Positions 19,000 to 37,226 of a stretch of DNA of 37,226 nucleotides are shown here, piece after piece. Position numbers and translations under genes: made by a program. Under the pieces are notes generated by a model. The model did not search any database, was not told the origin of the DNA, and worked only from the letters and a program-made list of their open reading frames with translations. Origin of the DNA: Burkholderiaceae bacterium (GTDB taxonomy: Bacteria > Pseudomonadota > Gammaproteobacteria > Burkholderiales > Burkholderiaceae_B); contig JADZBO010000087.1 of assembly GCA_020851995.1 (NCBI GenBank), positions 1 to 37,226 on the forward strand. The letters are read 5' to 3'. Each line of letters begins with the position of its first letter. Within the stretch, counting starts at the first letter, position 1.

Positions 19000-19075
19000 G
19001 CCGGTGTAGCTCAGTTGGTAGAGCAGCTCACTTGTAATGAGAAGGTCGAGGGTTCGATTCCTTTCACCGGCACCA
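19000..19075 (+). tRNA. tRNA-Thr (anticodon UGU)
   Basis: A 76-nt cloverleaf with encoded CCA. The acceptor stem GCCGGTG/CACCGGC is perfect; the D-arm is GCTC-loop-GAGC; the anticodon loop is CTTGTAA with TGT at 19033-19035; the T-loop is TTCGATT. The anticodon stem begins with a G-A mismatch and the T-stem uses two G-T wobbles, so it is slightly weaker than typical. It sits between sspB and the accessory region and is the probable integration target. Confidence 0.95.
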
Positions 19076-19194: not shown

Positions 19195-19950
19195 TTGACG
19201 ACCGCTTGTACGCCGGAAGAATTGGCTTGGTTCAGCCTGCACAACTATGACGGCTTTAGAACCGCCTCGACACAGGTTTGGGCTCAGGTGATCTGGGACC
19301 GGCTTAGTCTTGAACAATTCAGGCAACGCCCAGAGAACCACGCCTTCGTGCTTGAAAAATTCAGCCTACTACAAAGCGATCCGGTGCAAAGCCTGGGGTT
19401 TTCCATGCGAGTCAACCACAGGAATCCCGACATCGACACATCGACCGTCAGGCTCTTGTCTGTGGACCACGCACATATCCTCTCCGAGGAGTTCGGGGAA
19501 ATTGAAATTGGATCTGATTTAGGTACGATCGCCGTTGATCGCCTGCTACGCGACCGCGAAAATCCAATCAGTGACTTCGTCCACTTATCGCTCGATCTCC
19601 GAGGGACGGACGAGAAAATTCTAGATGACTTCGCGAAAATCTTGAAGACCGTGCGGGAAGCCACGAACGACGACACGCCGAACGGCGACTTTGCAAACAA
19701 GGTTTACGGCTGGCATAGAGCAAAAATCGTCCCGTACTTTGATCTCATGTTTTACGCTGCATTGCATGATCGTGAAATCAAAAGATCAACGCTCGCCGAC
19801 CTGCTACAGCTCGGTTCAATATCCGAAGGCACTGGCAAGGACGCACTGAAGTATCTGAAGCCCAGGACTAGTGAGGTGATTAGCCATAAGTATTTCCATA
19901 TTTTGCGCACCCTAAGCGACGACGCGGCGAGCGTCGGTGATCCCGAGTAG
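19195..19950 (+). CDS. Hypothetical protein at the island's left end
   Basis: A 251-residue soluble protein of unknown function. The TTG at 19195 is taken as start because AAAGGGG lies 7-8 bases upstream; no ATG or GTG nearby fits better. It begins with a PEELAWFSLHNYDGF motif that I associate, from memory only and tentatively, with DUF6387 proteins of integrative elements. A second block, VPYFDLMFYAALHDREI, lies near residue 180 and leads to a helical, possibly HTH-like, C-terminus. Codon use and GC content differ clearly from the core genes. It stands where an integrase would be expected next to the tRNA, but no recombinase catalytic residues are visible. Confidence 0.65.
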   Translation: MTTACTPEELAWFSLHNYDGFRTASTQVWAQVIWDRLSLEQFRQRPENHAFVLEKFSLLQSDPVQSLGFSMRVNHRNPDIDTSTVRLLSVDHAHILSEEFGEIEIGSDLGTIAVDRLLRDRENPISDFVHLSLDLRGTDEKILDDFAKILKTVREATNDDTPNGDFANKVYGWHRAKIVPYFDLMFYAALHDREIKRSTLADLLQLGSISEGTGKDALKYLKPRTSEVISHKYFHILRTLSDDAASVGDPE

Positions 19951-20074: not shown

Positions 20075-20266
20075 ATGGTCATTCCGCTTTTCGACCGCCA
20101 CCAAGCGGCAACCTACCTGGGTGTCAAACCCAACACGCTGGCCACCTGGCACAGCACCAAGCGTTATCGGATCCCGTACATCAAGGTCGGGCGTCTCGTT
20201 AAATACCGCGTATCTGATCTTGATGCGTTTCTGCAACAACGGACCATCGGGGGCGCAAATGCTTAA
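20075..20266 (+). CDS. AlpA/excisionase-like helix-turn-helix protein
   Basis: A 63-residue protein of the MerR-like HTH_17/AlpA type. The pattern FDRHQAATYLGVKPNTLATW gives the helix-turn-helix and IPYIKVGRLVKYRVSDLDAFL the wing and following helix, the standard excisionase-family signature. AAAGGAG precedes the start. Such proteins act as excision factors or as activators of integrase genes on P4-like islands. The reading frame overlaps the next gene by 8 nt, so the two are translationally coupled. Confidence 0.85.
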   Translation: MVIPLFDRHQAATYLGVKPNTLATWHSTKRYRIPYIKVGRLVKYRVSDLDAFLQQRTIGGANA

Positions 20267-23200
20267 CGATGACCAAACGTCCATGGCTATGTCCTCGCCA
20301 AACGACTCGACCGCTGATCTCGCGATGGATGATCAGATCAAGGCCGACGAAGACCTGATGCAACCGGAACAAACCGGCGATCCGCTCCGCGACGAGTCGG
20401 AGGATGAACAGGACGACGAGTACGACGACCCCTACGATGAAAGGTGGGAATGGGAAGATGAGGAGGAGCCGCTCGAGCTCTTTCCGAACAAGCCCAAGCT
20501 GACGGCAGAGGAAGACCTTATTCATCAACGCGCCTTGAATAACGTTCGTCCTCTTGTGCGGTACTTGGGCGAGGTAAAGCCGGCACTTTTCTCGGTCGTC
20601 GACTTCGTGCCACACGATCAGAATGGATTGATCAATCGCCCCGTGATTATGGTTGATGAGGGTATGGGTCGGTGGGAGGAAGAGTCTGATCAGGGCGCAT
20701 ATGGCTGGGACCTGATCAGCTTGATTGAGCATGTGCGTGGAGTCAGCAGGGATATCGCGCTGAACGTCCTGGTCACGTTTCTCGATGCGCTTGAACGTGA
20801 CGTTGGATGGGAGTGCATGCCCGAGTTCGACCTCTGTCAGGATCAAAACGCCAAGCAGATCGTACCGGTCCCGAGGAATGCACCGCCTCCCCCTGACCAT
20901 TGGGGGCGTGGTATGAGCAAATGCTACGACTATCCCCTGTACTCACCGTCGGGGCGTCTCCTGGGCTACACCCGCGAGGTCGAGATCGACGGGCAACTCG
21001 ACAAAATCTCTTGGACTTTTCGTAAACGTGTCTTCCCGTTGACCTGTTGGCAGTGCGACGATGGCAGTCTCGGTTGGAAAAACCAGCATCTTGCGCCGCG
21101 GTACCACCTTTACGGTGTTGAAAAACTGGCGTTGAATACTAAAACGCCAGTTGTTCTGACAGACGATGAAGCGTCCGCTGAATTCGGCGCCCTTGGGATT
21201 CCCGCCGAACATGACGAGGCAATCGGAGTTGGGTTTATTTCAGCGCCCGATAGCTTTGCAAAGACTGACCTCCGGCCTCTCGGCGGACGCATTGTCTACA
21301 TTCGACTGACGTCGGTTGGCGACGCCAATACCATCCGGGAAAGGCTCTGGCGCATCAACCCCCGCACAAGGGTCGGAATTATTACGATCAGTCTCGAGAA
21401 GTACTTTTGCCCGATCAAACCGAAATCCGGTCCCGGTGGTGCGCTGCTTCCCGATACGCCCGGAATGGCCTTTGGTTGGCGCGTACAGGACTATGTCATG
21501 GCAGACATCGAGAACGATTGGGACCTTAACGCTACCGTTGAGAAGCCGATCGAGAAGGCGATGCAGGTGTGCTCCGGAAACATCGTGTCTGATGCCAACG
21601 GCATTTTTCATGTCAAGTTTCACGAAGGTGAAGAAGTCCGTACGCAGTTGGCATCGCGCATTGATTTCGTTGCAAGAGCCAGAAGCGGCAGTAGTTCGGA
21701 TTGGGGTGCCTGCCTGGAGTTCAGGGATCATGACGGAGTTCCGCATTCCTGGTGCGTGCCTTACAGCACGCTTATCGGCAGCACTGACTACTGCAAAACC
21801 CTGTCGGGAATGGGTGCATACGTGTCCCCGTATGGGAGCAACATGCAGAAACTGACTGACTTCCTCTTGAACTACGAGCCCGGCCATCGCGCCCGCGCTG
21901 TCAGCAAGCCTGGTTGGGAAAAGAACCAGTTCATCTTTCCCGATGGATCGCACGTCGGCTATTCGGACGAGATGATCAGTTATCAGACGGCAGATCCGTC
22001 GAATAACGCGTTCGGGAGTCGCGGAACACTCGATGAATGGAAGAAAAACGTCGCTGCGCTGGGCGAGGGCAATTCGAGGATGGTGCTTGCCATTGCAACC
22101 GCGCTCACGGGGCCCGTGCTTCCGCTGCTCGGCGAGGAAAGCGGTGGGTTTCATTTCTCCGGTGGAAGCTCTACTGGCAAGACCACAGTGCTGAATTCAG
22201 CCTGCAGTGTCTGGGGGAAGCCAGAAAGCTTCATCGTGCGGTGGCGTGCCACGGCTAACGGAATTGAGGCCACAGCTGTGCAACGCAATCACACCCTGAT
22301 CGCCTTGGATGAAATGAGTCAGGTTAGCCCCGAGGAGGCAGGCCAGATCGTTTACATGCTCGCCAATGGTCAGGGGAAGGCGCGTGCTAGGCAAGACGCC
22401 ACGGTCCGGGCAATCAGCGCTTGGCAGCTCATGTTCCTTTCGACCGGTGAGGTCGGTCTCGAACAGCACATGGCGACCGCTGGGGTCAGGGTAATGGCCG
22501 GCCAACAGACTCGGTTGATTGACATTCCCGCAGATGTCGGGCGTGGTTACGGGATATTTGAAAACATTCAGGGCAGTGCCAACAGCGCAGAATTCTCGGT
22601 CCAGGTCAAAAGTCAATCTGTGCAGTACTACGGTGTAGCCGGTCGTGCATGGGTCAACGCACTGGCCGACCCTAAAGACCGCGCCGAGCTGATTGCGCAA
22701 ATCAAGGATCGCATCGAAGCATTCGTCAAACGTGTTCCTCAAGGAGCAGATGGACAGGTATATCGTGGTGCTCGCCGCTTTGCCCTTGCTGCCGCTGTTG
22801 CGGAAGCCTGCGTCGAACTGGGCATTCTGCCGTGGCCTTCTGGACATGCGACGAATGAAACGATGTGCTGCTTCGAAGAGTGGGTCGTGAATCGTGGCGG
22901 CTTGGGCAATCTTGAAGGCGAACAGGCGCTAAGCCGTCTTCGCCGCATCTTGGCCGAGCGTGGCGAGAGCGGGTTTACTCCGATGGAAATTGAAGGTATC
23001 GACTCGACGACAGAGCGGGTCACGTTCAACAGGCTGGGATTTCGGAGCCTGGGGGAGGACGGCTACATCGACTACTACATCTTTCCAGCGATGTTCAAGG
23101 AGGTGTTTGCCGCTGGGCAGGATCCAAGCCAATTCATTAAATTCCTTAAGCAAGCCAATGCCTTGATGCTGGATCGTAACGGCAAGCCTCAGGTTATGAA

Positions 23201-23312
23201 ACGGCTGCCGGGATTTAATTCCCCGGTACGGGTCTATCACGTACGCTCGACCGTATTGGCCGAATCGGACCGCGTAGACACCCCGCCTGTTGCCCGGATC
23301 AAAATCGGGTAA
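20259..23312 (+). CDS. DUF927 domain protein, putative helicase/primase-like replication protein of the island
   Basis: A 1017-residue protein from the ATG overlapping the AlpA-like stop. The first 70 residues are strongly acidic (DESEDEQDDEYDD). The middle holds a degenerate TOPRIM-like strand, PVVLTDDEASAEFGALG, in which the usual EGEK glutamate motif is missing. A DUF927 ATPase core follows, with Walker A GGSSTGKT (635-642) and Walker B LIALDEMSQ (Asp684-Glu685). DUF927 proteins are typical of phages, plasmids and P4-like satellites, where they act in replication. The protein is followed by an iteron-like array, supporting an initiator/helicase role. Primase activity is doubtful because no intact primase motif is visible. 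Confidence 0.82.
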   Translation: MLNDDQTSMAMSSPNDSTADLAMDDQIKADEDLMQPEQTGDPLRDESEDEQDDEYDDPYDERWEWEDEEEPLELFPNKPKLTAEEDLIHQRALNNVRPLVRYLGEVKPALFSVVDFVPHDQNGLINRPVIMVDEGMGRWEEESDQGAYGWDLISLIEHVRGVSRDIALNVLVTFLDALERDVGWECMPEFDLCQDQNAKQIVPVPRNAPPPPDHWGRGMSKCYDYPLYSPSGRLLGYTREVEIDGQLDKISWTFRKRVFPLTCWQCDDGSLGWKNQHLAPRYHLYGVEKLALNTKTPVVLTDDEASAEFGALGIPAEHDEAIGVGFISAPDSFAKTDLRPLGGRIVYIRLTSVGDANTIRERLWRINPRTRVGIITISLEKYFCPIKPKSGPGGALLPDTPGMAFGWRVQDYVMADIENDWDLNATVEKPIEKAMQVCSGNIVSDANGIFHVKFHEGEEVRTQLASRIDFVARARSGSSSDWGACLEFRDHDGVPHSWCVPYSTLIGSTDYCKTLSGMGAYVSPYGSNMQKLTDFLLNYEPGHRARAVSKPGWEKNQFIFPDGSHVGYSDEMISYQTADPSNNAFGSRGTLDEWKKNVAALGEGNSRMVLAIATALTGPVLPLLGEESGGFHFSGGSSTGKTTVLNSACSVWGKPESFIVRWRATANGIEATAVQRNHTLIALDEMSQVSPEEAGQIVYMLANGQGKARARQDATVRAISAWQLMFLSTGEVGLEQHMATAGVRVMAGQQTRLIDIPADVGRGYGIFENIQGSANSAEFSVQVKSQSVQYYGVAGRAWVNALADPKDRAELIAQIKDRIEAFVKRVPQGADGQVYRGARRFALAAAVAEACVELGILPWPSGHATNETMCCFEEWVVNRGGLGNLEGEQALSRLRRILAERGESGFTPMEIEGIDSTTERVTFNRLGFRSLGEDGYIDYYIFPAMFKEVFAAGQDPSQFIKFLKQANALMLDRNGKPQVMKRLPGFNSPVRVYHVRSTVLAESDRVDTPPVARIKIG

Positions 23313-23758: not shown

Positions 23759-24091
23759 ATGGCAAAGCTCTCCGAGCGAGACGTTTGTACCAAGTTCATC
23801 ACCCCCGCCTTAGTGGCGGCGGGTTGGGATTTGCAAACCCAGATTCGGGAAGAGGTCATATTTTCTTGGGACGCATTTAGCTGCCGAGAATACAGAATGC
23901 CGACGACCAGAACCGGCAATCCCATAATTTCGGACTCCGACGTTTCTGGGGATTTTCCTGTCGACGTTGCATCGTCAGATTGCCCACGATCCTGTGACAA
24001 AGATGAATCGACCGTTCCAGACTTATTCGACGCACAAAAATACTCAATCACGCAACTTCATCGACCTTTTGAATCCCTAAGCCGACCATGA
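23759..24091 (+). pseudogene. HsdR N-terminal remnant joined to an unrelated tail
   Basis: A 110-residue ORF. Residues 1-34 (MAKLSERDVCTKFITPALVA, then AGWDLQTQIREEV) look like the N-terminus of type I restriction R subunits of the EcoEI/COG4096 kind, normally 700-900 residues long. After REEV the similarity stops: residues 35-110 are polar and Asp/Ser-rich, with no HsdR endonuclease motif. The stop overlaps the ATG of the DUF499 gene (ATGA), so the ORF may still drive coupled translation of the defence operon. No HsdR continuation was found in other frames. It is read as a truncated hsdR at a recombination junction, though a functional chimeric leader protein cannot be excluded. Confidence 0.6.
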
Positions 24092-27000
24092 GCATCTATT
24101 CTCTTTGCAAGCCACGGGAGTCCGTTTTTGCGGCTGACCGTCGGGCGACCGTCCTTAATCTGGATTCGTTCCTCAAAGGCCAGGTTAACGGTCCCGTTTT
24201 CTTTGACGAGAATTACTTCACGAACGGAATGATTACGCTCGTAGATCGAGCGTTCCGTCACCTTGGCGGCGAAGGGGCTGGTTCATCGGTTTTTTTGTTG
24301 TCCCAAGCGATGGGGGGCGGAAAGACGCACAGCATGATCGCTCTAGGGTTGCTAGCGCGGGACCCTGAGTTGAGAAAAAAAGTTCTCGGAACACACAATC
24401 CTGCCCCGAGACTTGGCCGTTGCCGTGTCGCTGGATTCAATGGTCGCAATACGGATGCGTCAGGAGGGATCTGGGGCTCTCTTGCCGAGCAACTTGGCAA
24501 AGCTGATCAGTTCGCTCGTTACGTCTCCCCCTTATTAAGTGCGCCCGGCCCGGAAGCATGGAAACAGTTGCTGGGCGGCGATCCGTTGATTCTCTTCCTC
24601 GACGAACTGCCACCTTATCTCGAATACGCTGTGGCGGTTCCCGTCGGAAACGCTGATCTTGGTGTCGTAACCACCGCTGCCTTGGCCAACCTGTTCGTGG
24701 CAGTTGCCGACATGGACAACGTTTGCCTCGTTCTGTCTGACTTGGCGGGTTCAAATTTCAGCATCGGTCAATCGACTTTGGAAGCGGCGTTCAATCGAGC
24801 AATTCAGGGGATCGCCTCGGAGTCGAAGCGTATTGCAGTGCCAATTACGCCAGTCAATCCTAACGGCGATGAGCTTTACCACATCCTTCGAAAGAGGCTT
24901 TTCGAAACGGTCCCCACGGACTCAGAGATTGAGAAAGTTGCGAGAGCCTATCGAGAGGCCTTGAGCGAAGCCTCGAAAATGGGGCTTACAAGTACTACCC
25001 CCGAATCCCTTTACACACGAGTAATCGATGCCTATCCATTTCATCCGGACTTGCGTGAGCTGGTTGGAAAGTTCAAAGAAAACGAAGGATTCCAGCAAAC
25101 GCGCGGAGTGATCCGACTCATGCAGATGGTTGTTTCCAGTCTATGGCGAACAAACAAAGCGGCGACCATCGATTTGATTCACCCGTACGAAATTGACCTG
25201 AATCTGGACGAGATAGCCTCTGAAATCCGCACCATCAATCCATCGCTTAGCGAGGCCATCGCACATGACATTGCACACAATGGCGATGCCGAAGTGGAGC
25301 AGATTGATATTGCGAACGGCAACTCGGATGCTTCGGACGCGGCTAAGTTGATTCTGGTGGCTTCACTTTCGACAACCCCTGGCGCAATTCACGGTCTTCG
25401 TGAGCACCAACTCGTCGATTGCCTGCAACGACCAGGCCGAGACCTATCGACATTCAAGACCAACGTGCTCGACAAATTGGCGACACGTGCTTGGTATCTG
25501 CATAACTCAGCAGACGGGCGACTGTTTTTCAAAAATCAACAAAACCTGGCGGCCAAACTTCGTGCAACAGCTCTATCCCTGCACACCGAAACAGTCGACC
25601 GAATGCTTCGAGAACATCTGGAACAATATTTCTCCCCGACAATGCGGGATTGCTTCCAGATAATCAAGGTCCTGCCCCCGCCTGATGAGGTTCAAGTCGA
25701 ACAGGAGAAGACAACTCTTGTGGTTGTTCGGCCTGGCGGTCAGGCAAACCAGCTGCCCATTTCTGAAGATTGGCAGGCGTGGTGGGAGCAGCAGCAATAC
25801 AAGAACCGTGTCCTGTTCTTGACCGGTTCCCGCGATACGTTCCAGAAGGTTCTGGATTCAGCACGGCAAACCAAGGCACTGCAAAGCATCGAAGATGAAC
25901 TTCGTGCTGAAAGTACGCCAGCCGATGATCCTCAATGGCGTGCGCTCGATGCGCTGCGAGATCGTGTTGGGTTGCAGTTCACTGCTGCTCTCAAAGAAGC
26001 TTTCGACCAGATCGTCTATCCGTCGATCGGTTCCGCCCTGAGGGCAACAGGGACTGATCTTGCGTTCGCAGGGAACCAGAGTGGCGAGGCGACTATTCGC
26101 AAGACGTTGGAAGGAGCCCAAAAATTCACCACAAAGATCGATGATGACAGTTTTCGGTCCCGTGCCGAGGCCCGGTTGTTTGGGTCAGCCGAAACCAAGG
26201 TTGTGCTTTGGGCAGACTTCAAACGTGCGGCAGCCGTCAATACCAATTGGCCGCTACACAAACTTTCCGCACTCGATGACTTGAAGGCAGAGTGCCTTCG
26301 CCGAGGGCTCTGGCGAGAGGAAGGGAACCATGTTCGCCGTGGACCATTTCCACCGCCAACCCCAGAAGTATCTATTCGAGAACTTTCTGTTCAAGAAGAC
26401 GGCGATGGATGTACTTATCTAAAAATCGAACCTTTGCATGCTCCGCTGGTGGTTTTCGAAACAGGTGATGCCGAACCCACTAGCGCATCAACCCCGGTTC
26501 CTACTCCAACACGGTTCGTGGCGACAGGCTTGCGTTACCGCTTCCTCGCCTATGACCCTGCGGACATGACGAGAGTGAGCCCAGTTAAAGATTGGACAGC
26601 AAAAATTCGTTTGAAAAATCAATTACATCACCGTGGCGACCACTACGAGGTTGAGTTGCTTGCATTGCCAAGCGCCAATGGAATAACCATCCGGTATACG
26701 ACCGATGGCTCATCCCCGACCAGTACTGGGTCGGCGACCTACGATGGGATTTTCCGCGTTCCCAATGGAAGTCGTATTGTGTGTGCGATAGCGACTTGTC
26801 TCGCATATGATCTTGTATCCGAAACGATCAGGATTCAGATACCTCAACAAGGAATTGATACTCCCCCGCCGATCAACCTGACTGCTCCGGCACGCTGGAA
26901 GCAGCAAACCAAGCTCGACGACTCTGGGGCCGTTTGGGATTTTCTGCAAAAATTGGAGGCATTTGGGGACGTCATCGCCCACGACATCGGTCTCACAGCG

Positions 27001-27222
27001 GAGAGCATAAACGGGGATCAGAATGTAGAGTACTCAGGTGCCATGGAAAGTGGGTACACCGCAGCATCCGCGAAGGCAGTTGCTGAACAGCTTCAAAACA
27101 TCGTTGGCGGTGCCAGTCTGCGAATGTCGATCGGCTCTATGGCCTTTTCAAGCGGCCAACAACTCCTTGACTGGCTGAAAGCAACAAATCAGCAGTTCAA
27201 CGCAGCAAAGGTTAGTCAGTAA
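24088..27222 (+). CDS. DUF499 family AAA+ ATPase of a predicted anti-phage system
   Basis: A 1044-residue ATPase. Walker A is AMGGGKTHS (Lys79) and Walker B LILFLDELPPY (Asp172-Glu173), followed by a sensor-like VCLVLSDLAGSN. This is the COG1483/DUF499 arrangement, a family almost always beside a DUF1156 methyltransferase in defence islands. Near residues 860-915 lies a chitobiase C-terminal-like beta domain (TIRYTTDGSSPTSTGSATY, then a G-S-R-I-V-C-A-I-A strand). The C-terminal 100 residues carry a DUF499-typical helical end. It is first in a four-gene operon, 2 nt before the DUF3780 gene. Likely role, by inference: ATP-driven motor or assembly factor for DNA recognition or modification. Confidence 0.85.
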   Translation: MSIYSLCKPRESVFAADRRATVLNLDSFLKGQVNGPVFFDENYFTNGMITLVDRAFRHLGGEGAGSSVFLLSQAMGGGKTHSMIALGLLARDPELRKKVLGTHNPAPRLGRCRVAGFNGRNTDASGGIWGSLAEQLGKADQFARYVSPLLSAPGPEAWKQLLGGDPLILFLDELPPYLEYAVAVPVGNADLGVVTTAALANLFVAVADMDNVCLVLSDLAGSNFSIGQSTLEAAFNRAIQGIASESKRIAVPITPVNPNGDELYHILRKRLFETVPTDSEIEKVARAYREALSEASKMGLTSTTPESLYTRVIDAYPFHPDLRELVGKFKENEGFQQTRGVIRLMQMVVSSLWRTNKAATIDLIHPYEIDLNLDEIASEIRTINPSLSEAIAHDIAHNGDAEVEQIDIANGNSDASDAAKLILVASLSTTPGAIHGLREHQLVDCLQRPGRDLSTFKTNVLDKLATRAWYLHNSADGRLFFKNQQNLAAKLRATALSLHTETVDRMLREHLEQYFSPTMRDCFQIIKVLPPPDEVQVEQEKTTLVVVRPGGQANQLPISEDWQAWWEQQQYKNRVLFLTGSRDTFQKVLDSARQTKALQSIEDELRAESTPADDPQWRALDALRDRVGLQFTAALKEAFDQIVYPSIGSALRATGTDLAFAGNQSGEATIRKTLEGAQKFTTKIDDDSFRSRAEARLFGSAETKVVLWADFKRAAAVNTNWPLHKLSALDDLKAECLRRGLWREEGNHVRRGPFPPPTPEVSIRELSVQEDGDGCTYLKIEPLHAPLVVFETGDAEPTSASTPVPTPTRFVATGLRYRFLAYDPADMTRVSPVKDWTAKIRLKNQLHHRGDHYEVELLALPSANGITIRYTTDGSSPTSTGSATYDGIFRVPNGSRIVCAIATCLAYDLVSETIRIQIPQQGIDTPPPINLTAPARWKQQTKLDDSGAVWDFLQKLEAFGDVIAHDIGLTAESINGDQNVEYSGAMESGYTAASAKAVAEQLQNIVGGASLRMSIGSMAFSSGQQLLDWLKATNQQFNAAKVSQ

Positions 27223-27224
27223 TC

Positions 27225-27848
27225 ATGCAAAGCTCAACATCCGGAGCTCGAAAATCCATCGGCGTGGGTTTCCTTCCTGACGAAGCCCGACATGGCTTTC
27301 TGGTGGACGTGCCCAAGGGTTCGGGTAGCGACGACATCATATGTATTACGGAGCATCGTGGTGACGACCTGAACCAGCTCGGTGTACGTACTGTTGATAC
27401 CCCATCACCAAATGATTCATCGCTTCGAGTAGTGATTGATCGCAGGCGTTGGCTCGCTTTAGCCCCAGCCTTCTGGGATGAAGCAAACCGTCGGCTCCGC
27501 GCCAATGGCCTACCCGTGGCGAAGTTCATCAAGAATCCAGGTAAGCCGGTTCCAGTTCACCCGTCGTTGGGCAAGGAACTTTGCATCCTGTGTTGGTCCG
27601 TCGAGGATGCTTCGCCCGATGACATTCCGAATGCTCTTCACAACTGGGAGGCCTTGGCTCCAGAAGAACGCTGGTGGCTCTATACGATGACAGTCGCCAC
27701 CACAGGTCAGGCTATGCAGAAGGGGATTGGTTGGCGTAAGGCGCTTCGAGCCGCCATTGCCGATAACCCGTTTATCAAGGGCGAGGGGCTGTCGCCCAAA
27801 GCCCGTCGTGAACTGCTTGGGCACTCACAGCTTTCACTGTCTCTCTGA
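27225..27848 (+). CDS. DUF3780 family protein of the same defence operon
   Basis: A 207-residue protein that fits my recollection of DUF3780: an N-terminal beta-rich half (GVGFLPDEARHGFLVDVPKG), a middle LGKELCILCWSVEDA, and the signature block LAPEERWWLYTMTVATTGQA followed by GWRKALRAAIADNPF. The family is found almost only between DUF499 and DUF1156 genes. No catalytic residues can be assigned; a DNA-binding or adaptor role is a guess. It starts 2 nt after the ATPase and ends 17 nt before the methyltransferase gene. Confidence 0.75.
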   Translation: MQSSTSGARKSIGVGFLPDEARHGFLVDVPKGSGSDDIICITEHRGDDLNQLGVRTVDTPSPNDSSLRVVIDRRRWLALAPAFWDEANRRLRANGLPVAKFIKNPGKPVPVHPSLGKELCILCWSVEDASPDDIPNALHNWEALAPEERWWLYTMTVATTGQAMQKGIGWRKALRAAIADNPFIKGEGLSPKARRELLGHSQLSLSL

Positions 27849-27865
27849 TTTTTTGAGTAACCCCA

Positions 27866-30703
27866 ATGCAATCGTTCATTGAAACCCAATTCCCAATCGC
27901 AAGGCTTTCCGCTGAGTCTTACAAGGAGCGCAAAGCCAACAACGGTCAGACATTAACCCGTCTGGGAAAATGGTGGGGAAGGAAGCCGCTGATTCTGGTC
28001 AGAGCTTCAATACTTGGCATGTTGATGCCAGCCTCGGACAACCCGATGAAAGATCGAGAGATATTTCTCAAGATTCTGACCATGGATGACGACGGCACGT
28101 GGGAGAGAAGCAAGGGAGAAATCGAAAGCCGTCGTCAGTTCGATGCAATGCCGTATGCAACACGAATTCGGGACTGCGATCGTCCCGAAAACGTCGAAGG
28201 TCCCTCGGCGAGCGCTTGGGAGGAGATCAACTCCCACCTCGGCACTGCGGCGAACTGCCTTGCAGCACTGATTGAACAACTCGGTCAGCGCACCTTCGGT
28301 CACACGCCCCGCGTCGGCGATAGCTTTTGCGGTGGAGGCTCCATTCCCTTCGAGGCCGCTCGCATCGGTTGCACGGCGTTTGGCTCCGACCTCAATCCCG
28401 TGGCCGGGTTGCTCACGTGGGCCAGCCTGAATCTGCTAGGTGGCGGCAAGGACGTGCAGGAAGAGGTCATGCGCGTTCAGGCTGATGTACTGGCAGCCGC
28501 TGACCAGCAAGTCACCGCGTGGGGCATCGAACACAATGCGCAGGGCGAACGTGCCGATGCCTACCTTTACTGCGTGGAGGTGAAACCAGAGGGTTGCGAC
28601 TATTTCATTCCACTGGCACCCAGTTGGCTGATCGGCGAGAAATCCAAGGTCGTTGCCCGTTGGCGCCGCGATGCCAACAACGACTTTCTGACACCGGAAA
28701 TCGCCGTCGTCTCAGAGGCAGAATTAACACTATACAAAGACAAGAAAGGCGCAACGGCTGAGGATAGCCGCGTCGTCGACCCCTTTGACGCAACCCGCTC
28801 ATGGTCGGTGGAAGCCCTGCGTGGCCCCGATGGTCTGCGTCGCTGGATCAACGAGGACCTCGTTCCTCGCCCCGGTGATGTGTTTCAAGAGCGGCTTTAC
28901 TGCATCCGCTGGGTAAAGACTGTCATCAGGAATGGAAGGCCCAAGGAAATTCGTCGTTATGCTGCCCCGGACGAGACTGACCTTGCCCGGGAAGGCAAAG
29001 TCCGTGAACTTCTGCGCGAACGCTTCGACGACTGGCAACGCCAAGGGTTCATTCCATCGAAGGCTATACCTGAAGATGGTGACGAAACCGCACGCCTATA
29101 TCGTGAGCGTGGTTGGACTCACTGGCATCACCTGTTCACGCCACGACAATTGCTGACGCTTGGATTGGTAAGTGAGGTTGCAGCCAAGAAGGAAACTACA
29201 AAATTAGCTCTTGCCGCATGTCTGTTGGGCATTGGTCGCATGGCCGACTGGAATTCTCGTCTCAGTGCTTGGATGTTTCACAAAGGGAACGAAAAAGGCA
29301 ATCAGGTCTTCTATAACCAAGCACTGAACTGTCACTTCAATTATTCAGGCCGGTCGCTATTGAAGCTTGCTGATACCTTTTCTGTGCTTGGTTCAACTGC
29401 GAAGGAAAGGTTCAATGAGAAATCGGAAATCGCACTGAGTGATGCTCGTGACCTTCAACAAGTATGCGATTTGTGGATTACTGATCCTCCTTACGCCGAT
29501 GCAGTCAGCTACCACGAACTGGGCGATTTCTTCCTGGCTTGGTATGACAAGCTTTTGGTCAAGGCCTTCCCAGAGTGGACGCCTGATGCACGGGCTGAAC
29601 TTGCCGTGCGAGGCGATGGAGAGGATTTCCGCCGTTCAATGGTGGAAATCTACAAGAATTTGGCTAGACACATGCCAGATAACGGTTTGCAGATGGTCAT
29701 GTTCACCCATCAAGACCCTGCCGTGTGGGCTGACCTCGGCATGATTCTTTGGGCTGCGGGTCTCAAAGCAACAGCGGCTTGGACGATCAGCACTGAGACA
29801 GAAGCTGCTGGAATAAAGAAAGGTAATTACGTTCAGGGTACGGTCTGTTTAGTTCTTCGTAAGCGGGCGGCTGATGAACCTGGTTTCCTTGATGAGGTAT
29901 ATCCCCTCGTCGAGGACGAGGTGAAGCGCCAGATCACTTCCATGCTGGCACTCGATGAAGGCGGCGAACCAAACTTCAATGATGCGGATTACCAGCTCGC
30001 CGCCTACGCTGCTGCTCTAAAGGTGCTCACCCAGTACGCAACGTTGGATGGAAAAGCGGTTGAGCACGAAGTCTTCGCGGTTCGTGCTCGCAATGAGAAA
30101 AGTGATTTCCAGATCGTTATCGAACGTGCGCTTGGAATTGCTTGCGATACCTTGATTCCCCGAGGCCTGGACGCTTTCTGGCGCGAACTCTCATTGGTTG
30201 AACGGTATTACTTAAGGGCGTTGGATATCGAGAGTCGAGGAGAACGTCGCAAGGGCATGTATGAGGAACTGGCTCGAGGTTTTGGCGTGACCGACATTCG
30301 CCCGTTGCTAAAGAGTGATAAAGCAAACGGCGCAAGAATGTTTACTCCCTCAGGACTGGCAGGGACTCTGCTTTCTGCAGTTGGCGGTAGCACGAATGCA
30401 GATAACCTTTCGAGCAGAAGGGGGCGTGGCTCTGTTGCTGGGCATCATCCTTTTTCGGCGGCTCCCCTTCGTCACGTGATGTTTGCAATTCGTGAGACAA
30501 CGGCTGCTGACAACAGCCCTGAGGCTGGCCGCCAGTATTTGCGGGATACTTTCGGGCAAGGCTACTGGGGAAAGCGTGATGGTTTTATTGGATTGCTCGA
30601 ATGGCTGGCTGCGCTTGGCAACGCCGAAGGGATGAACGAGTGGCATGCAGATTCGGAAGCGGCAAGAATATTGGCTGGTCGTCTGCGGAATGATCACGCC
30701 TGA
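27866..30703 (+). CDS. DUF1156 adenine-specific DNA methyltransferase
   Basis: A 945-residue protein of the COG1743/DUF1156 family. The N-terminal DUF1156 block is plain (ETQFPIARLSAESYKERKAN, then GKWWGRKPLILVRA). The AdoMet-binding motif I is VGDSFCGGGSIPFEAARIG near residue 150, and the catalytic motif IV is TDPPYAD (Asp540-Tyr543), typical of N6-adenine or N4-cytosine methylases. The 380 residues between them may include the target-recognition part. The C-terminal third is helical and of unknown role. The stop overlaps the helicase start by one base. Expected function: epigenetic marking of host DNA as self. Confidence 0.88.
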   Translation: MQSFIETQFPIARLSAESYKERKANNGQTLTRLGKWWGRKPLILVRASILGMLMPASDNPMKDREIFLKILTMDDDGTWERSKGEIESRRQFDAMPYATRIRDCDRPENVEGPSASAWEEINSHLGTAANCLAALIEQLGQRTFGHTPRVGDSFCGGGSIPFEAARIGCTAFGSDLNPVAGLLTWASLNLLGGGKDVQEEVMRVQADVLAAADQQVTAWGIEHNAQGERADAYLYCVEVKPEGCDYFIPLAPSWLIGEKSKVVARWRRDANNDFLTPEIAVVSEAELTLYKDKKGATAEDSRVVDPFDATRSWSVEALRGPDGLRRWINEDLVPRPGDVFQERLYCIRWVKTVIRNGRPKEIRRYAAPDETDLAREGKVRELLRERFDDWQRQGFIPSKAIPEDGDETARLYRERGWTHWHHLFTPRQLLTLGLVSEVAAKKETTKLALAACLLGIGRMADWNSRLSAWMFHKGNEKGNQVFYNQALNCHFNYSGRSLLKLADTFSVLGSTAKERFNEKSEIALSDARDLQQVCDLWITDPPYADAVSYHELGDFFLAWYDKLLVKAFPEWTPDARAELAVRGDGEDFRRSMVEIYKNLARHMPDNGLQMVMFTHQDPAVWADLGMILWAAGLKATAAWTISTETEAAGIKKGNYVQGTVCLVLRKRAADEPGFLDEVYPLVEDEVKRQITSMLALDEGGEPNFNDADYQLAAYAAALKVLTQYATLDGKAVEHEVFAVRARNEKSDFQIVIERALGIACDTLIPRGLDAFWRELSLVERYYLRALDIESRGERRKGMYEELARGFGVTDIRPLLKSDKANGARMFTPSGLAGTLLSAVGGSTNADNLSSRRGRGSVAGHHPFSAAPLRHVMFAIRETTAADNSPEAGRQYLRDTFGQGYWGKRDGFIGLLEWLAALGNAEGMNEWHADSEAARILAGRLRNDHA

Positions 30704-33498
30704 TGCTAAAACGCCATTCCAGCCGTCGAAATCGGCTTGACCATACTGTCCTCAACCAGAGGCTTGAAGGAGCTGTTAGCTACGATCGGATTGCGGGCTA
30801 CTTCCGTTCAAGCTTATTCGAGGTAGCAGGCGAAGCGATTTCCAAGATTTCAGGCCCAATTCGCATCATCTGCAACTCAGACATCGATCCTCAGGACCTA
30901 TCCACAGCTGCGGCTGCTCAAGCGGCAATGAGGCGAAGTTGGTGCCAGGGAAAGCCCGAGGACGCTCCTCCGCTCGCTTTGCCCCGGTATAGCGCCCTCT
31001 TCAATGCGCTGACCAACGGTCACCTTGAAGTCAGGGTGCTGCCCGACGATGCTTTCGGACTGATCCACGGGAAGGCTGGTGTGGTCCGTTACGGCAATGG
31101 GTCGGCAACCGCATTCCTTGGTAGTGTGAATGAAAGCGCATCAGCTTGGAAACTGAACTATGAGCTGCTTTGGGAGGACAACGACCCAGAAACGATTAAC
31201 TGGGTGCAGGAAGAGTTTGATGCGCTATGGAATGACCCTCGGGCCGTCGACTTGTCTTGCTGCCCTTTCATCGTTCAGGATGTCCAGCGAATCATTTCCC
31301 GTCGGGTTATCGAACCCGAAGACCTTAAAGCTATTGCCGATCCCACTGCGGTTGCGGCAGCGGTGGCTGTCGAAAGTCCAGTTTACCGACGGGAGCAAGG
31401 CCTCTGGCCTCATCAGAAATACTTCGCTCGTTTGGCTTTGGAACGGCATCGCCTTGGAGGCGCCCGGCTGCTTCTTGCTGACCAGGTTGGTCTAGGCAAA
31501 ACCATTCAGTTGGCTATGGCAGCCTTGCTAATGGCGGTAGATGATCCGGACGGCGGCCCAATATTGGTTCTTGCGCCCAAACCTCTATTGCAGCAGTGGC
31601 AGGACGAATTGATGGAGTTGCTTCAGCTTCCATCTGCTCGGTGGAACGGACGAGCATGGGTTGATGAAAATGACCTCGAATATCCCTCTGATGGCGTGAG
31701 ATCGTTGGGTAAGTGCCCACGCCGAATCGGATTGGTATCGCAGGGTCTGGTTGTTAGAGGCCTATCAGACGCAATCAACCAACTGCTCAGCAAAAGATAC
31801 ACGTGCGTCATAGTCGACGAGTCACACCGCGCCCGTCGCCGCAAGGTGCCGAAGGTAGATGCTGGCGCCGATGAAATCAACGAACGGCCAGAGCCGAACA
31901 AGCTAATGGCTTTTTTGCTGGAGATTGGTCTCAAAACAAAGAGCATGTTGTTGGCGACGGCGACCCCTGTGCAGTTGCATCCGGTTGAGGCGTGGGATCT
32001 GCTCAACATCCTCTCGCAAGGAAATGACGGAGTATTGGGCGGTTGGACTCGCACAAGTCCTTGGTTTCAGGCCAGCCATTGCCTCGATATTGCTACGGGC
32101 GTCACGTCAGTTCCGACTAACGATGTCAGAAACGGCTGGCAATACGTTCGTGATCCACTGCCCTCTAAATTTGAAGACCCAGCGTTCGATCGTATCCGAC
32201 GCGGACTGAACGCAGAAGATACGCAATGGCAGTTCAATCCCGAAAGTCTGGAAAAACTGTCCCCAGCGATTCAGAGAGTTCAACTTCAAAACGGATTACT
32301 TCCGACTTATGGTGAAACGTTTAACCCATTATTGCGGTGCATCGTTCGCCGCACCCGCTCCTACCTTGAAGCCACGATCAATCCCGCTACAGGTAGCTAT
32401 TTTCTGCCGAGGGTTGCTGTAAAGCTTTTCGGAGAAGAGGATGACGATGCCCTTGTTCTTGGTGGCTATCTTCGAGAGGCTTATCAGGAAGCAGAGACGT
32501 TCTCACAGTTACTCCAACGTCGGGTTACGAGCGCTGGATTTTTTAAGACGCTTCTGTTGAGACGTTTAGGTAGTTCAATGGAGGCTGGGAGACGAACGAT
32601 CAGCAAACTCCTGGGCGAAGACGTCGATCTCACAGACGACGAAGATGACGATGATGCCGATGAGGAATCACCAGTTCAAATCGGTAGGCCACCGCAGGGG
32701 GCTAGTGAATTCAAGAACTTTAGCCCTGCCGAGCGCAACTCCTTGGAGCGTTGCCTTGAGCTATTGCGGGAAGGCGGGAATAACGATCCGAAGCTTGATG
32801 CAGTAATCGGGTACTTGTGCGGCGCCTCTAACAGCGGTTCAATACCTTGGCTTGATTTGGGTTGCATTCTATTTTCTCAGTATTACGACACTGTTCGTTG
32901 GGTGGGTGACGAGATGGCCAAGCGTGCAGAGTTTGTCGGGCTAGATATTGGCCTCTACGCTGGCAGCAATCGCTCGGGATTTTGGCGGAGTGGCAAGTTT
33001 CAACGCTGCGATAGAAATGTGTTGAAGGAGCGAGTCCGCGATGGCGATCTGAAATTGCTACTGGGAACAGATGCAGCTTCTGAAGGGCTCAACTTGCAAA
33101 AACTAGGCACGCTCATCAACATTGACTTGCCCTGGAATCCGACCCGTCTGGAACAGCGAAAAGGGCGCATCCAGCGTATTGGTCAGGCCAGGAGCGAAAT
33201 TTGGATTGCCAATCTCCGGTATCGGGACTCGGTGGAGGACAGAGTTCATCAGGTTCTAGCCGATCGTCTTGAGGCAATTCACAACCTCTTCGGTCAAATC
33301 CCTGACACGCTGGAAGATGTCTGGGTTCAGGTAGCTCTAAACGATGAACAGGCCGCTAATCGACTGATCGATCGAACCAAAGCAACGAGGAACCCGTTCG
33401 ATGCAAAATACAGCAAGGTGGTCGATGCCGATTGGGAAACCTGCGCATCGGTCTTGAACGCATCAAGCATGAAAGAATTGCTTTCTCAAGGATGGTGA
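30703..33498 (+). CDS. Phospholipase D-like nuclease/SNF2-type helicase
   Basis: A 931-residue fusion. The N-terminal PLD domain shows an HxK motif, LIHGKAGVV (His122, Lys124), followed by FLGSVNES (Ser141, Asn143), as in PLD-family nucleases and DISARM-type DrmC proteins; only one HxK half is seen, so it may act as a dimer. The SNF2 helicase follows: motif I DQVGLGKT (260-267), motif II VDESH (372-375), LLATATP, and C-terminal GTDAASEGLNLQ and RKGRIQRIGQ. An acidic insert (DDEDDDDADEES) splits the helicase halves. Likely effector: translocates on and cuts unmodified foreign DNA. The TGATG overlap couples it to the methyltransferase. Confidence 0.88.
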   Translation: MLKRHSSRRNRLDHTVLNQRLEGAVSYDRIAGYFRSSLFEVAGEAISKISGPIRIICNSDIDPQDLSTAAAAQAAMRRSWCQGKPEDAPPLALPRYSALFNALTNGHLEVRVLPDDAFGLIHGKAGVVRYGNGSATAFLGSVNESASAWKLNYELLWEDNDPETINWVQEEFDALWNDPRAVDLSCCPFIVQDVQRIISRRVIEPEDLKAIADPTAVAAAVAVESPVYRREQGLWPHQKYFARLALERHRLGGARLLLADQVGLGKTIQLAMAALLMAVDDPDGGPILVLAPKPLLQQWQDELMELLQLPSARWNGRAWVDENDLEYPSDGVRSLGKCPRRIGLVSQGLVVRGLSDAINQLLSKRYTCVIVDESHRARRRKVPKVDAGADEINERPEPNKLMAFLLEIGLKTKSMLLATATPVQLHPVEAWDLLNILSQGNDGVLGGWTRTSPWFQASHCLDIATGVTSVPTNDVRNGWQYVRDPLPSKFEDPAFDRIRRGLNAEDTQWQFNPESLEKLSPAIQRVQLQNGLLPTYGETFNPLLRCIVRRTRSYLEATINPATGSYFLPRVAVKLFGEEDDDALVLGGYLREAYQEAETFSQLLQRRVTSAGFFKTLLLRRLGSSMEAGRRTISKLLGEDVDLTDDEDDDDADEESPVQIGRPPQGASEFKNFSPAERNSLERCLELLREGGNNDPKLDAVIGYLCGASNSGSIPWLDLGCILFSQYYDTVRWVGDEMAKRAEFVGLDIGLYAGSNRSGFWRSGKFQRCDRNVLKERVRDGDLKLLLGTDAASEGLNLQKLGTLINIDLPWNPTRLEQRKGRIQRIGQARSEIWIANLRYRDSVEDRVHQVLADRLEAIHNLFGQIPDTLEDVWVQVALNDEQAANRLIDRTKATRNPFDAKYSKVVDADWETCASVLNASSMKELLSQGW

Positions 33499-33526: not shown

Positions 33527-33703
33527 GCGCCCGAAGTATTGCTGTCACTTGTAGAACGATGCCGCATCGTAGCCAAAGTTGAAGAGTTGATGGCTCTGTG
33601 CGATCGAATGAAAGTTGATCTGCGTGAAGCACGAGGCCAACAGTCACTATTGGCTGACACGTTGATTAGTGCTGCTTTAAGCACTGCTGACGTTGAGCAA
33701 TAG
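33527..33703 (+). pseudogene. HsdS C-terminal remnant
   Basis: The frame opens after a TAG at 33524, has no start, and runs to TAG at 33701. It reads CRIVAKVEELMALCDRMKVD followed by LREARGQQSLLADTLISAAL, the second conserved helix and end of type I specificity subunits (typically EQHRIVAKVDELMALCDRL). All variable target-recognition domains are missing. It begins about 30 bp after the helicase stop. Together with the HsdR N-terminus at 23759 it brackets the defence operon, as expected if a complete hsd locus was replaced internally. Confidence 0.8.
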
Positions 33704-35169: not shown

Positions 35170-35268
35170 CTAGCCAATGACGGCATTAACCATACAGAGT
35201 CCGGCAACACCTACGATGATCATTGCCGTCGGGATTGCGTAGGCCCAACAAAGCAGAATAAAGCTCAT
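35170..35268 (-). CDS. 32-residue membrane peptide coupled to the Gp3-like gene
   Basis: A frame of 32 residues (MSFILLCWAYAIPTAMIIVG, then VAGLCMVNAVIG) that is almost entirely one hydrophobic helix. Its ATG overlaps the stop of the upstream leftward gene as ATGA, so it would be translated by coupling. That overlap and the clean transmembrane character make it a likely real microprotein. Its function is unknown; phage-type small membrane proteins are one option. Confidence 0.45.
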   Translation of the reverse strand: MSFILLCWAYAIPTAMIIVGVAGLCMVNAVIG

Positions 35269-36173
35269 GGCGTTACCTCGTGACTGATTGCGTTGGATGG
35301 CCGTGACAGTTTGCTGCCCAACTTGTCGGCTAAAGACGGTTTGAGTTTCCCCTCAGATTCGTTGTTGCCTTCATCGTCAGGATAAAACTCTTCAACGACC
35401 GTGCTGGCCTCGTCTTCGGTCTCCTCGAACTCGCCGTTAGCCAAGCCAGTCCTTGCAGCATCGTCGAGCGCCGCCTGGTCAAACCCAGCATCTTCCCGCT
35501 TGGCATGGGTCTCGCCTGCGGCCTGCAGTGCTTCCGCCATCGTCATACCGGTCCTGAGGGTGAGATCAACGTAGTAGATCGGCGTGCCACGGCTCATCGT
35601 CGTAGACTTTCCCCTCAGTCGAAGCTCAAGCGGAAGACATGAGAGCTTGTCACCCGACAGTGCCTGGAATTGACGCAGCCTTGCAGTGAGGGTGCGGATG
35701 CTGTTGTACCCTGTCGTGCGGTAGACGAAGGTTGCCGTGGGATCCTCGTCACCGATCACGACATTCAACCTACCGAAGGGCTTGCAGAGACCGCCTTGCC
35801 CCATCTCGCAGTTGATTGGGGTCGGACATTGCAACTGCTTGATTCCGTCGCTGCAGATACGCCGACAGGTTTCACCGTTACCAGCACACATTGGTCGACC
35901 TGACTGCCGGTCAAACATTGTGTAGGCTGCCCGAAAGTTAAGCGCCGGATCATCAAACAAAACGGTCACCGGAATAGACCGGATCTTGCCCCCTTGGGCC
36001 TTTCTGAAGCCTTCATCGTAAGGATGTGGAATCCAGCCTTCCTTGGTTTGAATCTGTGACGTGATGGTGAACTGGTCATCCTTCTCGGGCAGTCGCTTGC
36101 CGTTTCGTTCAACAACTCTGCCAATCGATATCCGCCCAACAACAGGCGGGGTAATACTGAGTCCCTTGATCAT
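35265..36173 (-). CDS. Gp3-like / recombination directionality factor-family protein (annotated elsewhere as hydrolase or metal-binding)
   Basis: A 302-residue protein. The ATG at 36173 is chosen because AAAGGA lies 8 bases upstream and the family starts with MIKGLS; a longer frame would add 23 unrelated residues. Six cysteines (96, 103, 107, 116, 122, 130) suggest a metal-binding knuckle. The C-terminal third is acidic and disordered (DDAARTGL to EFYPDDEGNNESEG). From memory it resembles proteins of integrative elements that align with actinophage Gp3, the directionality factor for serine integrases; this is an inference without alignment. It is transcribed toward the defence genes. Confidence 0.6.
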   Translation of the reverse strand: MIKGLSITPPVVGRISIGRVVERNGKRLPEKDDQFTITSQIQTKEGWIPHPYDEGFRKAQGGKIRSIPVTVLFDDPALNFRAAYTMFDRQSGRPMCAGNGETCRRICSDGIKQLQCPTPINCEMGQGGLCKPFGRLNVVIGDEDPTATFVYRTTGYNSIRTLTARLRQFQALSGDKLSCLPLELRLRGKSTTMSRGTPIYYVDLTLRTGMTMAEALQAAGETHAKREDAGFDQAALDDAARTGLANGEFEETEDEASTVVEEFYPDDEGNNESEGKLKPSLADKLGSKLSRPSNAISHEVTP

Positions 36174-36392
36174 GTTTAATCCTTTGCATAGGCCCGCCCC
36201 TAGGATCGCCAGGGCGGACAGGTAACCCGAGTTCGACACCAAATCGGGTTTTTGCCTCGTTCCCCAAAATTTAGTTGAATGAAATCAGGCACTTAAAATT
36301 TTCTCTCAAAATTTCTGTAGTGGCAATATTGCATATTGAATGTGTGGGCAATATTTGTTGCCATCGATGCTCCTAGTTGATACACTGGCCGC
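36174..36392. other. Intergenic region between the Gp3-like gene and the transposase
   Basis: AT-rich, about 220 bp. CCGCCC/GGGCGG (36194-36199 with 36212-36217) forms a hairpin in the leftward leader. AACCCGA/TCGGGTT (36224-36230 with 36244-36250), followed on the + strand by TTT, is terminator-like for rightward reading. GCAATATTGC (36323-36332) is a perfect palindrome, and a second GCAATATTTGTTGCC lies 17 bp later. One of these may be part of the insertion sequence's left end, but no inverted repeat can be confirmed because the right end is outside. Confidence 0.45.
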
Positions 36393-37226
36393 ATGTTCAC
36401 CAAACTCACCCGCTCCGGCGGCCACACCTATGTGCAGTTGGCCGAATCGTTTCGCGACGACACGGGGCGCCCGCGCCAACGCACCATCTGCACGCTTGGT
36501 CGTCTGGACGAAACGGGTGGCAAGGTCGATTCGCTGCTCAAAGGATTGATGCGTGCCAAGGGCATGCCGGCCTCGATGGCCCAGGCACCCCAGGTCGCGT
36601 TCGAGTCGGCGCTTGCGTTGGGCGACGTCTGGGCGCTCGATCAGCTGTGGAAGGAACTCGGCTTTGACGCATTGAGTGGCGTGTTTCGTCGGGCGCGCTA
36701 TACGACGCCGATTGAACACGCGATCCGCGTCATGGTCTTTAATCGCCTCTGTGACGCGGACTCCAAACTTGGTGTCTTGCGCTGGCTGCAGACCGTCAGC
36801 ATTCCTCAGGTGGATGTCGAGGCGCTCACCCACCAGCATCTGCTGCGCAGCCTCGATGCGCTGATCGACCATCAACCGGCGGTTGACGAACTGGTTGCAC
36901 GCCAGATCAGCCCCTTGATCGATCAGGACATGTCGTTGGTGTTTTACGACCTCACCACCATTCGGGCCGCGGGCCTGAGCGAGCAAGACGGCGATGTGCG
37001 GCAGTACGGCATGTCCAAGGAAGGCGTGATTGCCCGCCAGTTCATGTTGGGTGTGGTGCAAACCGCCGACGGCTTGCCGATTTACCACGAGGTGTTTGAC
37101 GGCAACCAGGCCGAAGCGCCCACGCTGATCCCGACCCTTGAGAAAGTGCTTGCCCGCTTCGGTCACATTCGGCGCCTGATCGTGGTGGCTGACCGGGGAT
37201 TGCTGTCGCTGGACAACATCGATGAA
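36393..37226 (+). mobile_element. IS1634-family transposase, 3'-truncated by the window edge
   Basis: The first 278 residues of a DDE transposase. It opens MFTKLTRSGGHTYVQLAESF and has catalytic aspartates in LVFYDLTTI (Asp186) and IVVADRGLL (Asp267), matching the IS4-superfamily IS1634 group. The glutamate of the triad would lie beyond the window. GC content returns to about 60%, unlike the preceding 3 kb, so the element comes from a different background. It does not interrupt any recognisable gene in the window. Confidence 0.85.

What the first reader, a model, noticed from the sequence alone, without database searches (positions are those of the whole stretch)
24088..33498. Complete DUF499-DUF3780-DUF1156-PLD/helicase operon: a predicted but poorly characterised anti-phage system
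Four genes are joined by 2-17 nt gaps or TGATG overlaps. They pair an AAA+ ATPase, an accessory DUF3780 protein, a DPPY methyltransferase and a nuclease-helicase fusion. The logic is modification plus restriction, distinct from type I, BREX and DISARM because PglZ, DrmB, HsdR and HsdM are absent. All active-site motifs are intact.
Basis: partly seen in the sequence, partly recalled or inferred. Interest (0 to 1): 0.8.

Follow-up and report, generated by a model that had tools for sequence, protein, structure and literature searches.

The report
Known BREX-related operon replacing type I restriction
This is a complete four-gene set of an already described class of predicted bacterial anti-virus systems, here sitting between the two broken ends of an older, lost restriction system that it seems to have replaced.

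Summary
In detail: four adjacent genes at 24088-33498 encode DUF499, DUF3780, a DUF1156 methyltransferase and a PLD-SNF2 helicase. The combination is not new. A January 2026 paper (PMC12839542; passages read) defines it as the "Type-2 BREX-Related (BR)" system and proposes the same restriction-modification-like action. My library searches found no experimental test of this subtype.

The operon lies between the first 36 codons of an hsdR gene (23759-23866) and a 58-codon hsdS end (33527-33703). Both score far above shuffles. In six related genomes both matches lie in one hsd locus, in that order and on one strand. No HsdS domain was found elsewhere in this genome. The best reading is that a Type-2 BR operon replaced the inside of a type I restriction locus. 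None of the 83 other BR loci gave these matches, though many are cut near the operon. Verdict: new member of a known kind, with one unusual detail of locus history.

The parts
19000..19075 (+). tRNA-Thr (TGT), apparent left border of a lower-GC island
   Evidence: ARAGORN; 1-kb GC is 0.58-0.68 before it and 0.45-0.58 after it
23759..23866 (+). remnant of hsdR: start codon and first 36 codons (EcoAI/EcoEI-type)
   Evidence: PADLOC REase_I 3.6e-7; NCBIfam EcoAI-type HsdR 1.7e-6 over HsdR 1-33; residues 4-36 align with HsdR 7-39 of L111 at 73% identity, score 140 vs at most 57 in 300 shuffles
23759..24091 (+). chimeric 110-aa ORF: hsdR start followed by leader sequence, ATGA overlap with the DUF499 start; not found in other BR loci
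   Evidence: 66 nt at 23936-24000 match the DUF499 leader of L059
24088..27222 (+). DUF499 AAA+ ATPase; FnIII/Fn3_assoc-like segment at 26671-26796
27225..27848 (+). DUF3780 protein
   Evidence: AlphaFold2 pLDDT 79.6, no significant match among solved folds
27866..30703 (+). DUF1156 DNA methyltransferase (DPPY), N6-adenine predicted
29141..29455 (+). hypervariable segment of the methyltransferase (residues 426-530), likely part of target recognition
   Evidence: mean pairwise identity 0.42 against 0.86 for MTase 531-825 and 0.80 for helicase 226-600
30703..33498 (+). PLD (HKD-superfamily) nuclease fused to SNF2 helicase; PLD domain 30844-31230
33527..33703 (+). remnant of hsdS: 58 codons and stop; the frame is closed just upstream
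   Evidence: aligns over 52 residues with the C-terminus of HsdS in L111, score 105 vs at most 51 in 300 shuffles; matches in 8 other genomes of 150 searched

Best explanation
A Type-2 BREX-Related (DUF499-centred) defence operon that works as an ATP-driven restriction-modification system. The DUF1156 methyltransferase marks host DNA at a short motif read by its own target-recognition insert (m6A is inferred). The DUF499 ATPase assembles on DNA and scans it. DUF3780 acts as an adaptor or mark reader. The PLD-SNF2 protein moves along unmarked DNA and cuts it. In this genome the operon has replaced the inside of a type I R-M locus and lies behind the hsdR start codon, probably translationally coupled through the chimeric leader ORF. 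Shown: gene identity, intact key residues, the conserved set, a hypervariable MTase segment, hsdR and hsdS remnants at the two junctions. Inferred: the biochemical steps, the base modified, the coupling, and that the BR operon displaced the hsd genes rather than filling a locus already deleted.
For: Family matches over most of each protein. 51 of 80 loci from the genome scan hold all four genes, always in this order and on one strand. Key residues invariant. MTase 426-530 has mean pairwise identity 0.42, MTase 531-825 0.86, helicase 226-600 0.80 (25 operons incl. the window); in the AlphaFold2 model that segment falls between strand 2 (170-173) and the strand before DPPY (536-539), where PMC12839542 puts the TRD. 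The Type-2 BR definition in that paper fits. Replacement: hsdR and hsdS fragments in hsd order and orientation; in 6 of the 8 other genomes with the hsdS match the hsdR match lies upstream of it on the same contig and strand, 5-7 kb away; L111 and L112 hold hsdR, hsdM and hsdS by Pfam. No Methylase_S domain elsewhere in the genome (0 matches at E<=10; 11 of 14 controls ring).
Against: I found no functional test of the DUF3780 subtype in the library. m6A is not shown; the PADLOC paper calls the related HmaB an m5C enzyme. MTase 826-880 and the DUF499 C-terminus (891-1044) also vary, and low correlation with the helicase is seen for conserved MTase segments too, so that measure is not specific. 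29 of the 80 loci lack at least one gene; most of these are cut by contig ends, but L032 and L055 hold over 8.6 kb upstream with only an MTase scrap, and L087 has no MTase. The hsdS fragment could have come separately from the hsdR one. HsdS has two similar conserved segments: at the DNA level the best matches in L111 and L113 are to the inner one, and in L112 the HsdS protein runs on for over 200 residues past the match; the stop codon is what marks ours as an end. Of the 8 other genomes, G025 showed no hsdR match in the lists I saw and G118 was not searched for it. The leader match at the left junction is one 66-nt hit in one of 45 upstream flanks. The Methylase_S model does not cover such a short end piece, and the genome is 97.4% complete.
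Confidence: 0.72

Rival explanations
1. The operon is a BR system, but the effector does not act by cutting (for example helicase-driven inhibition of phage replication, as in BREX), and the PLD domain serves another role.
For: BREX is described as inhibiting phage DNA replication (start of the abstract of PMC13326643 in search listings); the textbook HKD Asp is missing in the PLD domain.
Against: The H, K, N and E residues of the PLD site are invariant in 81 of 81 proteins; PMC12839542 treats HKD as the effector nuclease.
Confidence: 0.2
2. The upstream 110-aa ORF is a functional small subunit of the system (an HsdR-N-like module) and not a remnant.
For: It keeps a start codon, is open for 110 codons and overlaps DUF499 by ATGA.
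Against: No match to it in any of the 83 BR loci L028-L110 at E<=1e-3 (many are cut upstream); homology to HsdR stops after residue 36; an hsdS end lies at the other side.
Confidence: 0.07
3. The hsd fragments are relics of a type I locus that had already decayed, and the BR operon merely landed in the scar.
For: Defence genes cluster and turn over (general knowledge); no sister genome with an intermediate state was found.
Against: The hsdS-like frame opens 28 nt after the helicase stop and stays open for 58 codons to a stop; hsdR keeps its start and 36 open codons, so decay is slight.
Confidence: 0.25

Closest known systems
Type-2 BREX-Related (BR) system, PMC12839542 (2026)
   Same: DUF499 ATPase with an FnIII-like segment, stand-alone DUF3780, DUF1156 MTase, PLD(HKD)-SNF2 helicase, no PglZ
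   Different: No difference seen in the genes; only the location, between hsdR and hsdS remnants
Hma (helicase-methylase-ATPase; Type-1 BR in PMC12839542)
   Same: HmaC-like ATPase (2.3e-50), HmaB-like MTase (3.2e-25), HmaA-like helicase (1.9e-30)
   Different: The paper gives DUF3780 and the N-terminal HKD as Type-2 features; scores to the matching PADLOC models are far higher
Type 3 BREX
   Same: PADLOC PglXI match of the MTase (3.8e-13) and BrxHII match of the helicase (2e-22); homology of the ATPase to BrxC is taken from PMC12839542
   Different: No PglZ in the genome; no BrxA or BrxB hit among the 10 island proteins scanned with PADLOC
Type I restriction-modification (EcoAI/EcoEI-like HsdRMS)
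   Same: The locus keeps the hsdR start and an hsdS end
   Different: No hsdM and most of hsdR and hsdS gone; the BR proteins share only general helicase and MTase folds with them
DarTG2 embedded in a type I R-M locus of enteropathogenic E. coli (PMC12255303; abstract read)
   Same: A defence module inside an hsd locus
   Different: There it is embedded within the R-M system; here the R-M system is replaced

Membership tests
Type-2 BR system | DUF499 AAA+ ATPase | tested here: met
   Pfam DUF499 1.4e-24, PADLOC 4.1e-182; GGGKT and DE invariant
Type-2 BR system | Stand-alone DUF3780 gene in the core locus | tested here: met
   Pfam 5.3e-39
Type-2 BR system | Helicase with N-terminal HKD nuclease in place of TUDOR | tested here: met
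   PLDc_2 at 48-176, SNF2 and Helicase_C after it; NF042964 above cut-off
Type-2 BR system | DUF1156 N6-MTase with TRD after core strand 2 | tested here: met
   DUF1156 3.5e-22, DPPY; the model has a long insert between strand 2 and the DPPY strand. The base modified is not tested
Type-2 BR system | RRM at the DUF499 C-terminus, with tandem FnIII domains in about half of taxa | tested here: inconclusive
   One Fn3_assoc/CHB_HEX_C_1 hit at 862-903; the RRM was not modelled
BREX (types with PglZ) | PglZ | tested here: not met
   No match in the genome (97.4% complete) at E<=0.001
Type I R-M | Intact hsdR, hsdM and hsdS | tested here: not met
   Only remnants of hsdR and hsdS; no HsdM hit on the ORFs scanned; no HsdS domain in the genome
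Anti-phage defence system | Protects against phage | not testable with these tools
   Needs a plating assay

The most novel reading that the evidence does not exclude
Type I R-M loci act as docking sites where whole defence operons of another class are exchanged: the incoming BR operon takes over the hsdR promoter and start codon, is coupled to it by a chimeric leader ORF, and leaves the hsdS end as a scar.
Probability: 0.2. Interest if true: 0.5.

Novelty: new member of a known kind. Interest (0 to 1): 0.33.

Why it matters
The four-gene set is widely transferred (by record titles, relatives lie in Proteobacteria, Verrucomicrobia, Planctomycetes, Cyanobacteria, Spirochaetes and Firmicutes; 19 plasmid records hold the helicase), yet I found no bench test of it in the library. 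This copy is compact with intact key residues, so it is a fair candidate for a first test. Its junctions record one defence system giving way to another at the same place. The hypervariable MTase segment predicts where specificity lies.

Tried and rejected
A first comparison seemed to show discrete swapped alleles of the MTase N-terminus (residues 1-125). Printing the sequences showed an artefact of my start-codon choice; with corrected starts residues 1-50 are conserved (0.89 and 0.93). What remains is a length-variable linker near residues 76-100. The idea is dropped; the figures used come. The corrected set leaves out proteins whose match starts after residue 60, ends early or runs off the contig: 47 DUF499, 38 DUF3780, 55 MTase and 80 helicase homologues stayed, and 25 operons with all four went into. 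One of these, L056, has a broken DUF499 that scores 0.00 in its C-terminal segment and lowers that mean.

DUF3780 function from fold: the AlphaFold2 model (pLDDT 79.6) has no significant match among solved structures (best E 0.92; by sequence best E 0.16), in line with PMC12839542. The MTase model matches only general SAM-methyltransferase folds (best E 0.009); by sequence the MTase and DUF499 have no solved relative at E<=0.01 and E<=0.1, while the helicase matches RapA and other SNF2 proteins.

A recurrent hsd scar in other BR loci: the hsdR-N, hsdS-C and ORF-tail queries hit 0 of 83 BR loci (L028-L110) at E<=1e-3, and whole HsdR, HsdM and HsdS from L111 and L112 hit none at E<=1e-6 (a YhcG-like nuclease hit L032, L058 and L066). 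Many of these loci end near the operon. DNA of 45 upstream and 78 downstream flanks gave the one L059 match and two short weak matches downstream.

An intact hsd operon at the same site in genus mates: 32 of 32 genomes match the sspB/tRNA query and 15 stretches were fetched. None of the 15 carries the island genes, but only 10 run well past a tRNA-Thr placed right after sspB; L154 and L162 end at or near the tRNA, and in L155, L157 and L158 the tRNA found is on the other strand, further off. The right end of the island is unknown because the window is the whole contig; no second copy of the tRNA end was found in it.

Full report
What is there. The four ORFs stand exactly at the stated coordinates on the + strand, with gaps of 2 and 17 nt and a TGATG overlap. 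Profile searches identify DUF499, DUF3780, a DUF1156 methyltransferase and a PLD-SNF2 helicase. Two of the four pass NCBIfam equivalog cut-offs (MTase 1229 bits, cut-off 1000; helicase 1176, cut-off 1100). DUF499 (749 of 1200) and DUF3780 (127 of 200) fall below theirs but match over most of their length.

How common it is. Among relatives, 3 of 150 genomes hold the PLD/helicase at E<=1e-100 and 7 of 399 genomes of the order hold DUF3780 at E<=1e-10; both counts include the window's own genome. In 51 of these 80 loci all four genes are found, always in the same order on one strand; the other 29 lack one or more, mostly because the contig ends, but L032, L055 and L087 hold enough upstream DNA to count as incomplete or altered. 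Several relatives carry extra DNA between the members (3.8 kb in L048, 5.6 kb in L049); the window copy has none. Plasmid records hold 19 relatives at E<=1e-50, annotated phage records none at E<=1e-20, IMG/VR contigs 22 (not followed up).

Active sites. Across 48 DUF499, 56 MTase and 81 helicase proteins (window included), Walker A GGGKT, Walker B DE, DPPY, the PLD residues H122, K124, N143 and E154, and the key residues of helicase motifs I, II and III are invariant. The aspartate of the textbook HKD motif is not there (R129; R in 56 and T in 18 of 81). That H, K, N and a Glu eleven residues on suffice in Nuc-type PLD nucleases is recalled, not from a call.

Where specificity may lie. In 25 operons (window included), MTase residues 426-530 have mean pairwise identity 0.42 and correlate weakly (0.26) with helicase similarity, whereas MTase 531-825 has 0.86 and correlation 0.81. 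Against a simple reading: residues 826-880 (0.58, correlation 0.24) and the DUF499 C-terminus (0.55, lowered by one broken row) also vary, and the conserved MTase segments 1-75 and 150-200 correlate weakly too (0.37, 0.36). In the AlphaFold2 model (pLDDT 82.5) residues 426-530 lie in the insert between strand 2 and the strand before DPPY, although 511-520 is modelled poorly. PMC12839542 puts the target-recognition domain after strand 2. This supports, without proving, a restriction-modification mechanism with the MTase as the main reader.

The flanks. The 110-aa ORF just upstream (23759-24091) begins with 36 residues like the start of an EcoAI/EcoEI-type HsdR and then departs. Against the HsdR of L111 the score is 140, with at most 57 in 300 shuffles. 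By 23936 the DNA matches the DUF499 leader of L059 (75.8% over 66 nt). Downstream, 28 nt after the helicase stop, a frame opens that aligns with the last 52 residues of HsdS in L111 and reaches a stop after 58 codons (score 105, shuffles at most 51). L111 and L112 hold hsdR, hsdM and hsdS by Pfam. The hsdS query matched 8 genomes besides its own among 150. In 6 of these 8 (G047, G055, G065, G070, G114, G117) the hsdR match lies upstream on the same strand, 5 to 7 kb away. G025 was not among the hsdR matches listed (one search drew 101 genomes of the family) and G118 was not searched for hsdR. HsdS carries two similar conserved segments, and by DNA the closest matches in L111 and L113 are to the inner one; the stop codon in the window speaks for the end. 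The genome has no Methylase_S domain at E<=10, while 11 of 14 controls ring. The simplest reading is that the BR operon replaced what lay between codon 36 of hsdR and the last 58 or so codons of hsdS.

The island. It begins after a tRNA-Thr at 19000-19075 with a fall in GC, followed by a DUF6387 protein and a DUF927 primase-helicase. Near the contig end lies a Gp3-like recombination directionality factor. Fifteen genus-mate stretches at the sspB site show none of these genes; 10 of them are long enough past a tRNA-Thr next to sspB to count.

What is known. PMC12839542 (passages only) describes Type-2 BR systems in 1120 taxa with these components and proposes a restriction-modification-like mechanism, with DUF3780 as a possible reader. 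In its main text HsdR occurs 0 times and HsdS once, so the hsd scar is not described there; its supplements were not read. The PADLOC paper (PMC8565338, passages) named the related three-gene Hma. DUF3780 occurs in one paper of the library. One search for hsd genes with BREX and replacement (listing of 12 of 15) showed no title or abstract start about such a replacement. PMC12255303 (abstract) reports DarTG2 embedded in a type I locus, so nesting of defence genes in hsd loci is known.

Judgement. The family is known and the mechanism is as already proposed. The added facts are the double-ended type I scar, the chimeric leader ORF overlapping DUF499, and the hypervariable MTase segment.

Noticed in passing
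window 20121-23312 (+): DUF927 primase/helicase (1063 aa), Pfam 8e-72, PHROG DNA primase, weak match to the SCCmec Cch1 replicative helicase; suggests that the island is a mobile or satellite-like element.
   Followed up: partly
window 35265-36242 (-): Gp3-like recombination directionality factor (Pfam 5e-41); no integrase was recognised among the ORFs scanned, and the window ends at the contig end.
   Followed up: no
window 36306-37226 (+): The listed minus-strand ORF 36306-37166 looks like the antisense of an open + frame resembling an IS1634-type transposase (family name recalled, not searched; frames), cut by the contig end.
   Followed up: no
window 19195-19950 (+): DUF6387 protein right after the tRNA-Thr; no match in the 15 genus-mate stretches fetched.
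   Followed up: no
L032, L058, L066: YhcG/DUF1016-like nuclease genes near (L032) or between (L058, L066) the BR genes of three relatives; L112 has one inside its hsd operon.
   Followed up: no
window 28091-28165 (MTase residues 76-100): Length-variable linker after DUF1156: short in the window, several times longer in some relatives.
   Followed up: partly
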